A DNA stretch of 36,492 nucleotides from Ilumatobacteraceae bacterium (lineage in GTDB: Bacteria > Actinomycetota > Acidimicrobiia > Acidimicrobiales > Ilumatobacteraceae): positions 1-36,492 of the forward strand of contig JAOBWK010000020.1 in the NCBI GenBank assembly GCA_025463305.1, in the 5' to 3' direction. Position 1 is the first letter of the stretch, and every line of letters starts with the position of its first letter. Shown here in pieces: positions 20,088 to 25,667 of the stretch. Below the pieces are notes generated by a model, which did no database searches, was not told the DNA's origin, and worked only from the letters and a program-made list of their open reading frames with translations. The translations under genes were made by a program, and so were the position numbers.

Positions 20088-21308
20088 TCACGGTCCGACG
20101 TAGGAGGCCCGCGGGCGGAAGCGCAGCGGGGTCTCGCCGTACTCCTCGATCGTGTGCGCCAGCCAGCCGGCCATCCGAGCAACGGACATCACCACCTCGC
20201 CACCCTCGGCCGGCATCTCGCCGACCATCGTCATCGCCGCGAGCGCGAAGTCGACGTTGGCCGCCTGGTCGATGCGCCGACCGACGGCCTCGTGCACGTC
20301 GTCGACGACGGTCACCACGCGGCTGCGCCCACCGACCTCACGCAGCAACCGGAGCAGCACCACGGCCCGCGGATCCGCCTCGACGTACACGCTGTGCCCG
20401 AAACCGGGGATGCGGCGGCCGGCGTCGAGGATCTCGGCGACGGCTCGCACGGCGCCGACCTCGCCGGCCCGCATCAGCATCGACCGGGCGGCGATGCTGG
20501 CCCCGCCGTGGAGCGGACCGCTCAGCACGCCGAGTCCGGTGGTGACGGCAGCCGCCGGATCGGCCCGGGTGGAGGCCGCGACGCGCACGGCGAGCGTCGA
20601 GGCGGCCAGCTCGTGGTCGGCCATCAGCACGAGCGCGGCGTTGAGCACGGCCAGCATCCCCGGTTGTGGACGCCTGGGTGACAGCCGGGTCCACAGCCGG
20701 CCGGCGATGGAACCGGCGATCGGTCGCGCGGGTGCGGGCAGCACGAGCCGGGGCACCCGCCCGTCGCCGGCCACCGGGAGGGCGTCGGTGATCGAGGCGA
20801 TCAGCCGCCGTCCGGCGACGGCGACGGACGCCGCGTCGAGCCCGCCGGCCGGCGGGAGGTGCGCCGACGCCACCGCCGCGGCGATGCGCAGCTGCCCGAC
20901 CAGATCCGCTCCCTCGGCTGCCGCGGGGAGTCCGAGTGGTTCGCCGATCCACCGCTCGTGCGGTGGTCGCGCGGTCGTGACGCCGGTCCCGAGCCACAGC
21001 AGCTCGGCCACCTCCTCGAACGAGTGCGTCACCGCCAGCTCGCTGCTCCACCGGCCGCGGTAGCGCACCCCCTGCGGCGAGAGCGCGGTGATGCCCGTCT
21101 CGATCAGCATGTTGAGCGAGGTGCTGCGGCTGCTCTGCCGTGGCCGGCCGCGTCGGGCGAGGGCCTCGATGGCGCGCGGGTCGTACGAACTCGTCCTGCC
21201 ATCGGCCGAACGCTCGCGCACCACCAGCCCGCGGCTGACGTAGGCGTAGAGCGTCTCGACCTTCACCCCGAGCCGGCGGGCGGCCTCTTGCGTCGTCAGA
21301 CCCTGCAC
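20088..21308 (-). CDS. Citrate synthase-family protein with N-terminal MerR-like DNA-binding domain
   Basis: Protein of 406 residues. Residues 1-60 form a MerR/excisionase-type helix-turn-helix (LTTQEAARRLGVKVETLYAY, then a wing with SYDPRAIEAL). Residues about 65-406 are a citrate synthase fold with every catalytic residue: His232 (ADHELAAST), His267 (GPLHGGA), His305 (GFGHSVY) and Asp353 (VDFALAAM). It may make citrate or 2-methylcitrate, may regulate DNA in response to acyl-CoA or oxaloacetate, or both. It diverges from a second citrate synthase gene across a 57-base gap holding a palindrome. The start is GTG 21308, with TATGAT (21317-21322 on the minus strand) eight bases upstream and no Shine-Dalgarno. 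Confidence 0.9.
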   Translation of the reverse strand: MQGLTTQEAARRLGVKVETLYAYVSRGLVVRERSADGRTSSYDPRAIEALARRGRPRQSSRSTSLNMLIETGITALSPQGVRYRGRWSSELAVTHSFEEVAELLWLGTGVTTARPPHERWIGEPLGLPAAAEGADLVGQLRIAAAVASAHLPPAGGLDAASVAVAGRRLIASITDALPVAGDGRVPRLVLPAPARPIAGSIAGRLWTRLSPRRPQPGMLAVLNAALVLMADHELAASTLAVRVAASTRADPAAAVTTGLGVLSGPLHGGASIAARSMLMRAGEVGAVRAVAEILDAGRRIPGFGHSVYVEADPRAVVLLRLLREVGGRSRVVTVVDDVHEAVGRRIDQAANVDFALAAMTMVGEMPAEGGEVVMSVARMAGWLAHTIEEYGETPLRFRPRASYVGP

Positions 21309-21316
21309 GAGGGTGG

Positions 21317-21358
21317 ATCATAATCAACGTTGACTTCGCCGGCGAGCGGTCGCACCGT
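21317..21358. promoter_or_regulatory. Divergent promoters and palindrome between two citrate synthase genes
   Basis: Minus strand: TATGAT (21322-21317) eight bases before GTG 21308. Plus strand: TTGACT (21330-21335), a 17-base spacer, CACCGT (21353-21358), seven bases, ATG 21366. The near-palindrome AATCAACGTTGACT (21322-21335, perfect 10-bp core TCAACGTTGA) spans the plus -35 and abuts the minus -10, so one bound protein could control both genes. Confidence 0.6.
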
Positions 21359-21365
21359 GGTCGGC

Positions 21366-22565
21366 ATGACACTGGTTGATCGAGACGTGCCTGGTGGCGC
21401 GGAGGTGGAGCCTGCGGAGATCGTCGTTCCCAGAGGGCTCAAGGGCGTGGTGGTGGCCGACACGACCGTCGGCGACGTGCGCGGCGAGGAGGGCTTCTAC
21501 CACTACCGCCAGTACTCGGCCGTCGAGCTCGCCGAGCAGCGTCCGCTGGAGGACGTGTGGCGGCTGATGATCGACGGTGCGCTGCCGGCCACGCTGGCCG
21601 AGCGCGACGCGTTCGTCGACGAGGTGGCGCCGCTCGGCGAGGTGCCCAACGCGGTCGCCGCCGTCCTGCCGGCCATCGCCGCAGCGAGCGAGCCGCTCGA
21701 CGGGTTGCGCACCGCGCTGTCGCTGGCGGCGGCGCAGCGTGGCCTGCGGCCGAACATCGACATCGACCACGCGACTCGACGCGCGGACTCGCTGTTCCTG
21801 TGCGCGATCACCCCGACGTTGCTCTGCGCGCTGCACCGCCTCCGTCACGGTGAGCAGCCGGTGGCGCCGCGCCGCGATCTCGGCTACGCCGCGAACTACC
21901 TGTGGATGATGACCGGCTCAGAGCCGGCGCCGGAGCACGCGAGCGCGGTCGAGCACTACCTGATCTCGACGATCGACCACGGCTTCAACGCATCGACGTT
22001 CACGGCCCGCGTCGTGGCGTCGACCGGGGCCGACCTCGGTGCCTGCGTCACCGCCGGGATCGGTGCGCTGAGCGGACCGCTGCACGGTGGTGCGCCGAGC
22101 CGGGCGCTCGCGCTGCTCGACGAGATCGGATCGCCGGACCGCATCGATGCCGTCGTGCGGCCGATGATCGTCGGTGGCGACAAGATCATGGGGTTCGGCC
22201 ACGCGGTCTACCGCACCGACGATCCCCGGTCGGTCATGCTGCGCGGCGTCGCCCGGTCGCTCGCGGTGGACGAGCGCTCGACAGCGTTCGTGCGGTTCGC
22301 GCTCGACGTCGAGCGATCGGTGATCGCGCTGCTGGCCGAGCTGAAGCCGGGCCGCCGGTTGTACACGAACGTCGAGTTCTACGCCGGCGTGGTCATGGAG
22401 CTGTGCGGCGTGCCACGGTCGATGTTCACGCCGACGTTCGCCTCGAGCCGGGTGATCGGCTGGTGCGCGAACATCCTCGAGCAGGCCGACGACAACAAGA
22501 TCATCCGCCCGAGCGCCCGCTACATCGGGTCTCCGCCCCCGCAGCCGGTGCCGCCGTTACATTGA
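21366..22565 (+). CDS. Citrate synthase family protein (citrate/2-methylcitrate synthase)
   Basis: Enzyme of 399 residues that condenses acetyl-CoA or propionyl-CoA with oxaloacetate. The catalytic His residues are His205 (IDHGFNASTF), His240 (GPLHGGAPS) and His279 (GFGHAVYRTDDPR). The position normally held by catalytic Asp (NVDFYSG in most bacterial enzymes) is Glu337 in TNVEFYAGV. The C-terminal CoA/Arg region RPSARYIG is intact. The start is ATG 21366, the family N-terminus, in register with a TTGACT-N17-CACCGT promoter; the ORF could extend upstream only through that promoter. The patatin-like gene starts four bases after its stop, so the two may be co-transcribed. Confidence 0.93.
   Translation: MTLVDRDVPGGAEVEPAEIVVPRGLKGVVVADTTVGDVRGEEGFYHYRQYSAVELAEQRPLEDVWRLMIDGALPATLAERDAFVDEVAPLGEVPNAVAAVLPAIAAASEPLDGLRTALSLAAAQRGLRPNIDIDHATRRADSLFLCAITPTLLCALHRLRHGEQPVAPRRDLGYAANYLWMMTGSEPAPEHASAVEHYLISTIDHGFNASTFTARVVASTGADLGACVTAGIGALSGPLHGGAPSRALALLDEIGSPDRIDAVVRPMIVGGDKIMGFGHAVYRTDDPRSVMLRGVARSLAVDERSTAFVRFALDVERSVIALLAELKPGRRLYTNVEFYAGVVMELCGVPRSMFTPTFASSRVIGWCANILEQADDNKIIRPSARYIGSPPPQPVPPLH
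22558..22563 (+). promoter_or_regulatory. -10-like hexamer before the patatin gene
   Basis: TACATT, six bases before ATG 22570 and overlapping the end of the citrate synthase gene; fits the leaderless pattern of the window. Confidence 0.4.
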
Positions 22566-22569
22566 CCTG

Positions 22570-23556
22570 ATGTCAGACGGCGAGTCCGGATCCGCCACAC
22601 GGATCGGTCTCGTCCTCGGTGCCGGCGGGGTCGCCGGCGGCGCGTTCCACGCCGGCGTGCTCGCCGCGCTCGAGCAGGCGATGCACTGGGATCCGCGCAC
22701 GGCGTCGGTCATCGTCGGCACGTCCGCCGGATCGATCACCGCGACATCGCTGCGCGCCGGGTTGTCCGCGTCCGACGGGCTCGCCCACGCCCAGGGCCAC
22801 GCGATGTCACCCGAGGGCGAGGCGTTGCTCCGCTCCATCGGCCCGGTGCGCCGTCAGCCGCTTCGGCCGGCCGCACACGCCCGGCGCCCGAAGGACATCG
22901 CCGCATCGCTCGCCAAGGCCGCGGCTCGCCCGTTCACGGCGGCGCCGTGGACCTTGCTCGCCGGGCTGCTGCCGGAGGGTTCGGTGAGCACCGAGTTCAT
23001 CTCCTCGGGCATCGCCGGCATCCACCCCGGTCCGTGGCCGGACGAGCCGCTGTGGATCTGCACCGTCCGCCAGGGCGACGGTCGCCGGGTTGTGTTCGGG
23101 CGGCACGACCGCACCGGTCCCCTCGCCGACGTCGTCGCCGCGTCGTGCGCGATCCCCGGGTTCTTCAGCCCGGTCACCGTGGACGGTGACGCCTACGTCG
23201 ACGGTGGCCTGCACTCGCCGACGAACGCCGACCTGCTCGCCGACAAGGCGCTCGGGCTCGACCTGGTGCTCGTCAGCTCGCCGATGTCGGCGAGCGGCAG
23301 CCGGCTGCGGATGGGCCGCGGCCATCCCGTGCGCCGTTGGTCGGGTGCGCTGCTCGACGCCGAGGTGCTGCGCCTGCGCCGTCGCGGCATCCCGGCTGTC
23401 GCGTTCCAACCGACGGAGGCCGACGTCGCGATGATGGGGTCGAACGCGATGGATCCCACCCGGCGCGCCGCCATCGCTGCCCAGGCCAAGGCGTCGACCC
23501 TGCGCCGCCTGGCCCGCTCCGACACCCAGGCCCGGCTCACCGCCCTCCGCCCCTGA
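22570..23556 (+). CDS. Patatin-like phospholipase / acyl hydrolase
   Basis: Serine hydrolase of 328 residues using a Ser-Asp dyad. The glycine-rich oxyanion loop is LGAGGVAGGAFHAGVL (16-31), the nucleophile Ser52 is in GTSAGS (50-55) and the catalytic Asp211 in VDGGLHS (210-216). Bacterial patatins cleave acyl chains from phospholipids or other lipids; the substrate is unknown. No signal peptide is seen, so it is probably cytosolic or membrane-peripheral. It lies four bases after the citrate synthase stop, but TACATT (22558-22563) six bases before ATG 22570 could also give it a separate leaderless mRNA. It is convergent with the ArsA-like genes with a 13-base gap. Confidence 0.92.
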   Translation: MSDGESGSATRIGLVLGAGGVAGGAFHAGVLAALEQAMHWDPRTASVIVGTSAGSITATSLRAGLSASDGLAHAQGHAMSPEGEALLRSIGPVRRQPLRPAAHARRPKDIAASLAKAAARPFTAAPWTLLAGLLPEGSVSTEFISSGIAGIHPGPWPDEPLWICTVRQGDGRRVVFGRHDRTGPLADVVAASCAIPGFFSPVTVDGDAYVDGGLHSPTNADLLADKALGLDLVLVSSPMSASGSRLRMGRGHPVRRWSGALLDAEVLRLRRRGIPAVAFQPTEADVAMMGSNAMDPTRRAAIAAQAKASTLRRLARSDTQARLTALRP

Positions 23557-23569
23557 CCGCCAGCGTCGG

Positions 23570-24658
23570 CTACTCGCCGACGAGAAGGGCGGCGAGGCGG
23601 GAGAGGCCGTCGAGATCGTGGACGTCGACCTCGAGCAGCGGGATGTGCGTGGTCTCCACCCCGCTGACCACATCGGTCAGCGCGCCCATCTCGCCTCGCT
23701 CCGACGACGCCAGCGCGAACAGCTCGCGGTGGTACGCGACGTGCTCGGCGAGCGGGCCGTCGGCGAGGTCGTCGAGTCCGTCGAGCGGCGGCGGCAGCGG
23801 GTGGACGAGGTTGATGACGACGGCGTCGAGGTCGAAGCCGCCGTCGATGATCGCGTTGGCGAGGTGCGTCGATTCGTCGATGGCTTCCGAGCGCGGGCTG
23901 GACACGAGCACGAACGACGTCGAATCGGCGCGCAGCAGTTCGGCCACCTCGCCGGCCCGCGTGCGCAACCCCTGCTCCATGCCCGACAGCGAACGGAAGA
24001 ACTCGATCGTGTCCTCGACCAGGCGTGGTCCGGCGAGCCGGCGGACGACCCACAAGAACGCGTTGGTGCCGGCGTTGGCCACCTTCGCGAACGATCGCGA
24101 CGGCATCGTCAGGGCGCGGTAGATCGGATGGCCGAGGAAGCGCATCAACCGCTCCGGCGCCTCCAGCAGATCGATCGCATCGCGCGACGGTGGCGTGTCG
24201 ATGATGACGAGGTCGTAGTCGCCACTGCCCTGCAGTTGGTGCAGCCGCTCGATCGCCATGTAGTCCTGGGCCCCGGCGAGCGAGCCGGCGATGCTGCGGT
24301 ACACCGGGTTGGCGAGGATCTTCTCAGCCTTGGCCTCGTCCCCCGTGCGCTCGATGATCATCCGGTCGAACGTCGTCTCGGCATCGAGCATCAAGGCCCA
24401 CAGCGCGCCGCCGTCGGCGCCGATGCCGGCCACCTCGTGCGGCTCGAACATCTTCGCGTCGACGTCGATGCCGAGCGCGTCGGCGAGCCGTCGCGCGGGA
24501 TCGACGGTGACCACCACGACGCGCCGGCCGCGGTTGGCCGCGGCGATGCCGAGCGCGGCCGCGCTGGTGGTCTTGCCGACGCCGCCGGGCCCGCACGTGA
24601 CGAGCAGGGTCGCCGAGTCGACGATCGCGCCGAGGTGGGTGGGTGTGCCGTCGCTCAC
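23570..24658 (-). CDS. ArsA/GET3-like ATPase, P-loop-complete subunit (Rv3680-like)
   Basis: ATPase of 362 residues of the deviant Walker A (SIMIBI) class. The P-loop GPGGVGKTT (23-31) keeps the nucleotide-binding Lys29 but has Pro24 where these enzymes carry the signature lysine. Next come VVVTVDPARRLADALG and the DTPPSRDAIDLLE switch region. The arsenite-binding Cys set of ArsA is not seen. The gene is the second of an overlapping pair (GTGA at 24658-24655), as in mycobacterial Rv3679-Rv3680, whose pair is linked to envelope metabolism and stress survival. The partner has the complementary lysine pattern, so a heterodimer is likely. The long upstream extension of the frame lies inside the partner gene and is rejected. 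Confidence 0.9.
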   Translation of the reverse strand: MSDGTPTHLGAIVDSATLLVTCGPGGVGKTTSAAALGIAAANRGRRVVVVTVDPARRLADALGIDVDAKMFEPHEVAGIGADGGALWALMLDAETTFDRMIIERTGDEAKAEKILANPVYRSIAGSLAGAQDYMAIERLHQLQGSGDYDLVIIDTPPSRDAIDLLEAPERLMRFLGHPIYRALTMPSRSFAKVANAGTNAFLWVVRRLAGPRLVEDTIEFFRSLSGMEQGLRTRAGEVAELLRADSTSFVLVSSPRSEAIDESTHLANAIIDGGFDLDAVVINLVHPLPPPLDGLDDLADGPLAEHVAYHRELFALASSERGEMGALTDVVSGVETTHIPLLEVDVHDLDGLSRLAALLVGE

Positions 24659-25602
24659 GCGCGGCCCTCGACCGGTGCACCGAGCGCGTCGGCGAGCACG
24701 TCGAGCTCGGCGATGCCGAGGTGCGCAGTGGGCAGTCGCGGCAGCACGACGCGGGGGAGTGGCAGCAGCTCGTCGAGCCGGGCGAGCTGGCGGCGTTGGC
24801 CCTCGAGCCGCATCCGCCCGAACTCGGCCGATGCCTCGAGCGCGGCCTTGTTCACCGCCGACAGCTTGACGCCCTGAGCCTTTGCCGCGGCGGTCACGGA
24901 GAGGTCGAGCCCGGGCCGGTCGGTCCAGCATCCGTTGACGACGAGCGGCGCGAGGTCGAGGCCGAGCGTCTCCTCGAGGTCGTACGCCAGCTCGATGGTC
25001 TCGTTCACGGGGGTCTCCTCGGGCAGCGTCACCAGCAGGCCCTGGCAGCGCTTGCTGTCGGACAGCATCGCCGCCACCTCGTCGGCCTGGACCCGCACCG
25101 GACCGTTGGCCACCACCTTCTGCAGCGCCGACGCGGAGTGCAAGAACGCGGCGGCGTGCCCGGCCGGCGGCGCGTCGATGACGATCAGGTCAGCGGCGCG
25201 CTCGCGCTCGAGCTCCTTGATCTTGCCGAGCACGAGGAGGTGCTCGAGGCCCGGCGTCGCCGCGGCGATCGAGTCGAGCTGTGCCGCGGATGCCGCCTTG
25301 CGGAGCACACCGTTGATGCCCTTCAGCTCGAGGTAGTCGGCGAAGGCCTGCTGCGGCGGGATCGTGCGGCCGCGCACCCGGCCTGTGCGGCCGACCTTGC
25401 GGAGCACGCGGTCCTCGGCGTCGAGCGGCGGACCGCCGAGCAGCGACCCGACGCCCTCGCGCCCGTCGACGGAGATGAGCAGCACGTCGGCGCCCTCGCG
25501 GGCAGCCAGCAGCGCCACGGCTGCGGCGACCGTCGTGGACCCGACTCCACCCTTGCCGGCCACCACGAGCACGGTCGCGTCGGTGACCCAGGTCGGTTGC
25601 AC
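24655..25602 (-). CDS. ArsA-like ATPase homologue lacking the P-loop lysine (Rv3679-like)
   Basis: Protein of about 315 residues, first of the ArsA-like pair. The P-loop is GKGGVGSTT (16-24): the signature Lys17 is kept but the nucleotide-binding lysine is Ser22, confirmed by the TCC codon. The rest fits the family: LLISVDGREGVGSLLGGPPL, GLEHLLVLGKIKELER, VIDAPPAGHAAAFL, LVTLPEETPVNETIE. It probably cannot hydrolyse ATP alone but could supply Lys17 to the partner's site. The start is uncertain: GTG 25602 has TACCCT six bases upstream and normal codon use after it; ATG 25620 adds six codons with unusual third positions. Its stop overlaps the next start. Confidence 0.88.
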   Translation of the reverse strand: MQPTWVTDATVLVVAGKGGVGSTTVAAAVALLAAREGADVLLISVDGREGVGSLLGGPPLDAEDRVLRKVGRTGRVRGRTIPPQQAFADYLELKGINGVLRKAASAAQLDSIAAATPGLEHLLVLGKIKELERERAADLIVIDAPPAGHAAAFLHSASALQKVVANGPVRVQADEVAAMLSDSKRCQGLLVTLPEETPVNETIELAYDLEETLGLDLAPLVVNGCWTDRPGLDLSVTAAAKAQGVKLSAVNKAALEASAEFGRMRLEGQRRQLARLDELLPLPRVVLPRLPTAHLGIAELDVLADALGAPVEGRA

Positions 25603-25667
25603 GCCATGAGGGTATGCCATCGGCGCACGACGGCGGGTGAGGAGCCCCGACGATCCGCAGATGGCCG

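What the first reader, a model, noticed from the sequence alone, without database searches (positions are those of the whole stretch)
23570..25602. ArsA-like pair with complementary loss of the two key lysines
SIMIBI ATPases such as ArsA, GET3 and MinD use a deviant Walker A motif, GKGGxGK(S/T): the first Lys (signature) reaches across the dimer and the second holds the phosphates. Here the first subunit reads GKGGVGSTT (signature kept, P-loop Lys replaced by Ser) and the second GPGGVGKTT (signature replaced by Pro, P-loop Lys kept). Together they make exactly one complete site. As I recall, Rv3680 of M. tuberculosis also lacks the signature Lys while Rv3679 keeps both, so this genome would have taken the asymmetry further. 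The genes overlap by four bases, fitting equal production. The prediction is an obligate heterodimer with a single composite ATPase site and one dead one.
Basis: partly seen in the sequence, partly recalled or inferred. Interest (0 to 1): 0.72.

Follow-up and report, generated by a model that had tools for sequence, protein, structure and literature searches.

The report
Lopsided two-part ATPase, one site
Two neighbouring bacterial genes make a paired energy-using protein in which one of the two fuel-burning sites has lost key parts while the other is kept complete, a pattern found in a group of related bacteria and useful for asking whether such machines need one working site or two.

Summary
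The pair lies on the minus strand: A, 25602..24655, GKGGVGSTT; B, 24658..23570, GPGGVGKTT; four-base GTGA overlap. It is not a sequencing error: 120 of 120 listed relatives of A read GKGGVG[ST][ST], and 120 of 120 of B read GPGGVGKT. In 185 distinct A/B pairs A keeps the signature Lys (185/185), B keeps the P-loop Lys (185/185) and never has a signature Lys. A's P-loop Lys is absent in 40/185: Ser/Thr in one well-supported clade (window included), Arg about five times. So this is no single reciprocal swap: loss of B's signature Lys is family-wide in the sample (and in Rv3680); the change in A is younger. Both hit the same composite site; the other (B's P-loop plus A's signature Lys) stays complete. 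The Ser/Thr clade also changed A Asp/Glu121 to His and B Arg/Lys284 to Leu, and keeps A's nucleotide-binding shell. Best reading: a BagA/BagB-like Get3/ArsA heterodimer with one canonical and one degenerate site, as in degenerate-site ABC exporters. 'Dead' is not shown: lysine-less relatives are reported with ATPase activity.

The parts
24655..25602 (-). subunit A (BagA/Rv3679-like, Get3/ArsA fold), 315 aa from GTG; alternative ATG start at 25620
23570..24658 (-). subunit B (BagB/Rv3680-like), 362 aa from GTG
24655..24658 (-). GTGA four-base overlap of A stop and B start
   Evidence: sequence
25531..25557 (-). A intradimeric Walker A, GKGGVGSTT (residues 16-24); signature Lys17 kept, P-loop Lys replaced by Ser22 (codon 25539..25537)
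   Evidence: Ser/Thr in 120 of 120 listed relatives; K 145, S 29, T 5, R 6 of 185 pairs
24566..24592 (-). B Walker A, GPGGVGKTT (residues 23-31); signature place Pro24 (24589..24587), P-loop Lys29 kept
   Evidence: GPGGVGKT in 120 of 120 listed relatives
25465..25467 (-). A switch I Asp46 (Get3 Asp57 equivalent)
   Evidence: D in 34 of 34 Ser/Thr-type A; E 98, D 32 of 145 Lys-type A
25240..25242 (-). A His121, at a place that is Asp/Glu in the Lys- and Arg-type A sampled
   Evidence: H 34 of 34 versus D/E 145 of 145 and 6 of 6
24500..24502 (-). B switch I Asp53 (DPAR motif)
   Evidence: D in 34 of 34 and 145 of 145 and in 5 of 5 Arg-type rows of the thinned set
23807..23809 (-). B Leu284, next to the adenine Asn283; Arg/Lys in 143 of 145 Lys-type pairs

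Best explanation
The two genes encode an obligate A:B heterodimer of the Get3/ArsA fold, related to mycobacterial BagA/BagB. ATP held by B's P-loop (Lys29) and completed by A's signature Lys17 reaching across the interface is the working site. The second site, on A's P-loop, receives no signature Lys from B (true of the whole family sampled) and in this clade has also lost its phosphate-binding Lys (Ser/Thr). It has become a non-hydrolysing site that probably still holds nucleotide, or at least keeps the loop shape that presents Lys17. The cycle would thus run on one hydrolysis per dimer. Shown here: the residues, their fixation, the clade and the predicted fold. Inferred: the dimer, which site works, and what A's site still does. 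The client or pathway is not known; the fold predicts nucleotide-driven opening and closing of a client-binding dimer.
For: Signature Lys kept in A in 185 of 185 and P-loop Lys kept in B in 185 of 185 distinct pairs, signature Lys never in B. On the A tree P-loop Lys changed six times at the least, all in A, none in B (on the B tree the starred branches force five): each falls on the site that already lacks the trans Lys (if either subunit were equally likely, two-sided chance 0.03 for six, 0.06 for five). A's own switch I residue is Asp in only 32 of 145 Lys-type A (98 Glu), B's is Asp in 145 of 145 and 34 of 34. Closest solved pair: 6bs3, 'ADP-bound bacterial Get3-like A and B', both chains in one entry; a cited paper's title calls them 'two interacting ATPases' (reference list of PMC10597346). 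In the intradimeric Walker A class the first Lys crosses the dimer and the second points to the beta-phosphate in its own monomer (PMC10248533, section 9 read). A's loop and shell stay unchanged while codons vary.
Against: No dimer model or assay was possible; A and B are in different frames and no coordinates are returned by the predictor. Lysine-less members are reported to keep ATPase activity: E. rectale TadZ lacks both lysines and has a Lys from a neighbouring helix in their stead, and changing either Lys of MSMEG_3743 gave no significant change (PMC10482377, passages; TadZ second-hand); McdA lacks the signature Lys and is called a strong ATPase (PMC9178275, passages); NosGet3d has Arg for the P-loop Lys and still hydrolyses (PMC10248533). 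So A's site may be active. As I recall (Whitaker 2020, not held), both ATP-binding motifs are needed in M. tuberculosis, so A's site matters there. The Ser/Thr change arose once, so its link with Pro in B cannot be tested by repeated events; Pro also occurs in 10 of 145 Lys-type pairs and in 0 of 6 Arg-type pairs. Tree counts do not give direction; that Lys is ancestral in A is inferred from its spread and from Rv3679, Get3 and ArsA.
Confidence: 0.68

Rival explanations
1. The lysine was relocated, not lost: His121 of A (or another basic residue) stands in for the P-loop Lys, so A's site still binds and perhaps hydrolyses ATP with rewired chemistry.
For: A Asp/Glu121 (151 of 151 Lys- and Arg-type A) is His in 34 of 34 Ser/Thr-type A. 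It lies at the start of the helix 119-133 in the model. TadZ is reported to use a Lys from a neighbouring helix (PMC10482377, passages). Asp46, Asp143, Asn223 and Pro288 are kept.
Against: Closeness of His121 to the phosphates was not measured (no coordinates). Many other residues changed on the same long stem branch (0.61; columns). B supplies no signature Lys to this site in any pair sampled.
Confidence: 0.2
2. A's site is simply empty: the loop is conserved only because it carries the signature Lys and packs the dimer.
For: P-loop Lys normally mediates phosphate binding (PMC10248533); the loop must stay shaped to present Lys17.
Against: Adenine Asn223, A-loop Pro288 and Mg-binding Ser/Thr23 (roles recalled from Get3), which the signature Lys should not need, are kept in 34 of 34.
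Confidence: 0.25
3. Pseudo-enzyme pair or sequencing/assembly artefact.
For: Two changed motifs in adjacent genes.
Against: 120 of 120 and 120 of 120 listed relatives share the motifs; codons vary while residues hold; B keeps the canonical P-loop and switch I residues.
Confidence: 0.03

Closest known systems
BagA/BagB (Rv3679/Rv3680) of Mycobacterium tuberculosis, PDB 6bs3-6bs5
   Same: Get3-like fold, solved as A plus B; B lacks the signature Lys (Ala), A keeps it
   Different: Rv3679 keeps the P-loop Lys and has Glu in switch I; the window's A has Ser22 and Asp46 and is about 30% identical; scores are under the NCBIfam cut-offs
Get3/TRC40 and ArsA
   Same: Fold match; intradimeric Walker A layout, switch I/II, adenine Asn, A-loop Pro (residues, roles recalled)
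   Different: Those are, as I recall, homodimers or tandem halves with both lysines; here two subunits share one complete set
NosGet3d
   Same: P-loop Lys replaced (Arg) and switch I Asp to Glu, still a slow ATPase (PMC10248533, section 9)
   Different: Signature Lys kept in each chain; Arg is a milder change than Ser/Thr. The Arg-type A of L054, L165, L194, L203 and L204 resembles it
BcsQ and TadZ
   Same: Lys-less P-loops in SIMIBI proteins: BcsQ RGGVGTT (PMC9178275 Table 1), TadZ without both lysines (PMC10482377, passages)
   Different: Both lysines are lost in one chain; as far as I know no partner chain keeps a complete site
Heterodimeric ABC exporters with one degenerate nucleotide-binding site
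   Same: One canonical and one impaired composite site (PMC7756269 and others, search listing with abstract starts only)
   Different: Unrelated ATPase class and transmembrane transporter; analogy of working only

Membership tests
ArsA_ATPase (Pfam PF02374) | profile score over the curated cut-off of 24.3 bits | tested here: met
   A 69.1, B 95.6 bits
BagA / BagB equivalogs (NF053622 / NF053621) | profile score over the curated cut-offs of 400 / 521 bits | tested here: not met
   A 140.5, B 281.5 bits; best-scoring NCBIfam hit for each. Filed as relatives, not as members
GET3_arsA_TRC40 (TIGR00345) | profile score over the cut-off of 135 bits | tested here: not met
   A 68, B 87.4 bits
Intradimeric (deviant) Walker A ATPases | GKGGxGK[ST] with both lysines in each chain | tested here: not met
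   A lacks the second, B the first; together one set
BagAB-type pair | adjacent A then B genes; signature Lys in A only | tested here: met
   185 of 185 distinct pairs kept, the window pair among them; the motif filter fixes glycines but leaves both Lys places free
BagAB-type pair | physical A:B dimer | not testable with these tools
   known only for the solved pair, from the entry title
Get3/ArsA fold | closest solved fold | tested here: met

The most novel reading that the evidence does not exclude
In one clade centred on Ilumatobacteraceae, a Get3/ArsA heterodimer has been rebuilt as a strictly one-site machine: A's site lost its P-loop Lys, B's signature place became Pro, and near-invariant charged residues changed with them (A Asp/Glu121 to His, B Arg/Lys284 to Leu). 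The second nucleotide then acts, if at all, as a fixed structural ligand, so the whole opening-closing cycle runs on a single asymmetric hydrolysis.
Probability: 0.45. Interest if true: 0.68.

Novelty: new variant of a known kind. Interest (0 to 1): 0.52.

Why it matters
Get3/ArsA/MinD machines are usually drawn as symmetric two-ATP dimers. A natural series (both lysines in A; Arg in A; Ser/Thr in A), with B's lysine never touched in the sample, allows a direct test of whether one hydrolysing site suffices and what the second nucleotide is for, the question that degenerate-site ABC exporters opened for transporters. It also predicts that in the BagAB family at large, the mycobacterial pair included, only the B-bound nucleotide is hydrolysed with help from a trans Lys.

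Tried and rejected
Sequencing error at Ser22: rejected. A displaced P-loop Lys elsewhere in the loop: rejected by gap-free alignment to Rv3679. One reciprocal swap event: rejected, since B lacks the signature Lys in all 185 pairs. Pro in B as cause or requirement of the loss in A: not supported (10 of 145 Lys-type pairs have it, 0 of 6 Arg-type pairs). One apparent loss of B's P-loop Lys (L207, counted as 'M') was a wrong motif match; the true motif is GAGGVGKT. A function from gene context: not found; the neighbouring NUDIX/DUF4916 gene is matched in 13 of 34 clade loci (L001-L033, L053), many of which end within a few kilobases, and no other flanking gene of the window was matched in more. 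The locus search used the pattern GKGGVG[ST][ST]T (besides [PA]EETPVNE), which favours Lys-less A, so its proportions are not used; the class draw does not share this bias: of its 30 best loci (100 genomes, 72 with a match) 4 were Ser-type and 26 Lys-type, and the further stretches L149-L208 held no Ser/Thr-type A. Dropped before the 185-pair count: 12 duplicates, 4 without B, 3 short, 3 without motif, of 207; since rows without the glycine pattern were dropped, invariance of those glycines in the 185 is partly by construction. Trees are quick LG+G4 trees of 155 thinned rows, with warnings about long rows (L165, an Arg type, among them); starred branches force five Arg changes on the A tree and four on the B tree. 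The sister group of the Ser/Thr clade is not firmly resolved (support 90, not starred). Not used: the third protein search, viral and metagenome contigs, phages, plasmids, E. coli genomes, Rfam.

Full report

IS IT REAL. Of the 120 listed relatives of A (3115 passed the threshold), 120 have Ser or Thr at the P-loop Lys place; of the 120 listed relatives of B (3614 passed), 120 read GPGGVGKT. In 37 Ser/Thr-type A sequences the loop residues G16 to G21 and T24 do not change while their codons do, and residue 22 is coded by six different codons for Ser or Thr. So the motif is held by selection and is not an error.

HOW FAR IT REACHES. I collected A/B pairs from 80 genome loci found by similarity (one of its two patterns favours Lys-less A), from draws of 100 genomes of the class and 149 of the phylum, and from further stretches of these genomes. 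Of 207 A genes, 185 distinct pairs remained after dropping 12 duplicates, 4 without B, 3 short and 3 without motif. A's signature Lys: 185 of 185. A's P-loop residue: Lys 145, Ser 29, Thr 5, Arg 6. B's P-loop Lys: 185 of 185, counting L207, whose automatic motif was wrong. B's signature place: Ser 92, Pro 44, Ala 28, Thr 20, Gly 1, Lys 0 (aligned column for 179 pairs, motifs for the six Arg-type pairs). Ser/Thr in A goes with Pro in B in 34 of 34; Pro also occurs in 10 of 145 Lys-type pairs and 0 of 6 Arg-type pairs. On a tree of 155 thinned A sequences, built without residues 22 and 121, the Ser/Thr type is one clade (one change, SH-aLRT 100, stem 0.61), and Arg needs five changes. The B tree also needs one and five, of which its starred branches force one and four. 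The trees do not give direction; Lys as the older state is inferred. Records in the clade are titled Ilumatobacter, Ilumatobacteraceae, Acidimicrobiaceae, Actinomycetota and the like; one record titled Ilumatobacteraceae (L036) shows a Lys-type pair, which these genomes can carry besides. In the less biased class draw 4 of the 30 best loci were Ser-type.

WHAT THAT MEANS. The first Lys of this motif crosses the dimer to the partner's ATP and the second binds phosphate in its own chain (PMC10248533, section 9). So the site with nucleotide on B needs Lys29 of B and Lys17 of A: both are present in every pair. The site with nucleotide on A needs the P-loop Lys of A and a signature Lys from B: the second is missing in every pair sampled, the first in 40 of 185. 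Six changes away from Lys in A (five if only starred branches of the B tree are counted) and none in B is what one expects if A's site was already demoted before the Lys was lost. In agreement, the switch I Asp is invariant in B but is Glu in 98 and Asp in 32 of 145 Lys-type A. The finding is thus not a mutual exchange between two equal subunits but a further step of an old asymmetry. One point runs the other way: the Ser/Thr clade has Asp, the Get3 residue, in switch I of A in 34 of 34.

WHAT ELSE CHANGED. In the Ser/Thr clade A has His at residue 121 (34 of 34; invariant also in the 38 sequences), where the Lys- and Arg-type A have Asp or Glu (151 of 151). B has Leu at 284 (0.97 of 34; one Met among the 19), where 143 of 145 Lys-type B have Arg or Lys, and Pro178 and Trp203 where Arg or Lys prevail (132 and 118 of 145). 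Residue 121 opens a helix in the A model. By the usual layout of this fold that end faces the nucleotide and interface, which I infer and did not measure. A's Ser/Thr23, Asp46, Asp143, Gly148, Asn223 and Pro288 are kept in 34 of 34. Such a complete shell argues for bound nucleotide rather than an empty site, but it does not show it.

CAUTION ON 'DEAD'. Passages of PMC10482377 say that E. rectale TadZ has ATPase activity without both lysines, with a Lys of a neighbouring helix in their stead, and that changing either Lys of MSMEG_3743 did not change its activity significantly. PMC9178275 (Table 1 and passages) lists BcsQ as RGGVGTT and calls McdA, without the signature Lys, a strong ATPase. NosGet3d, with Arg for the P-loop Lys and Glu in switch I, has a kcat of 0.28 against 1.10 per minute for AtGet3d, at nearly the same KM (PMC10248533). 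So A's site could be slow rather than dead.

PARALOGUES. In five genomes where I looked at the three strongest A hits (G001, G003, G005, G030, G046), each carries one Ser/Thr-type pair and two Lys-type pairs; a sixth (G002) has the Ser/Thr-type pair and one pair cut off by a contig end, not counted. The trait belongs to one of three paralogous pairs, and each such genome also holds pairs in which A keeps both lysines.

FUNCTION. Nothing in the window names the client. For the mycobacterial relatives, passages of PMC10597346 link bagAB to glycerol and nitric oxide tolerance, and passages of PMC12216072 to survival under antibiotics; I do not carry these over to this clade.

NOVELTY. Get3-like A and B solved together are known (6bs3). 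Searches of the held open papers (one search found none) gave no listing that I recognised as describing a Lys-less A, but listings, abstract starts and passages are all I saw apart from one section of PMC10248533, and the two key papers (Hu 2019, Whitaker 2020) are not held. I recall from the second that both ATP-binding motifs matter in M. tuberculosis; if so, the clade here differs in working, not only in letters. I file the pair as a new variant of a known kind.

Noticed in passing
L054, L059, L165, L194, L203, L204: A's P-loop Lys is Arg, about five separate times on the tree, with B's lysine intact and Asp/Glu121 kept.
   Followed up: partly
G001, G003, G005, G030, G046 (L111-L116, L152, L153, L157, L163, L209-L212): Genomes with the Ser/Thr-type pair carry three BagAB-like pairs: one Ser/Thr-type and two Lys-type (5 of 5 looked at).
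   Followed up: partly
L148, L197 (same genome, G145): Two adjacent A genes followed by one B gene, suggesting alternative A:B dimers or a longer assembly.
   Followed up: no
window 20088-22565: Two divergent citrate synthase genes; the minus-strand one has a MerR-type helix-turn-helix at its N terminus.
   Followed up: no
window 22570-23556 (+): Patatin-like phospholipase gene convergent with B, not matched in three or more of the 34 clade loci.
   Followed up: partly
window 25668 to about 26030 (-): Possible small lipoprotein (LGAC-like box, then a run of Thr) upstream of A on the same strand; read by eye from the open frame.
   Followed up: no
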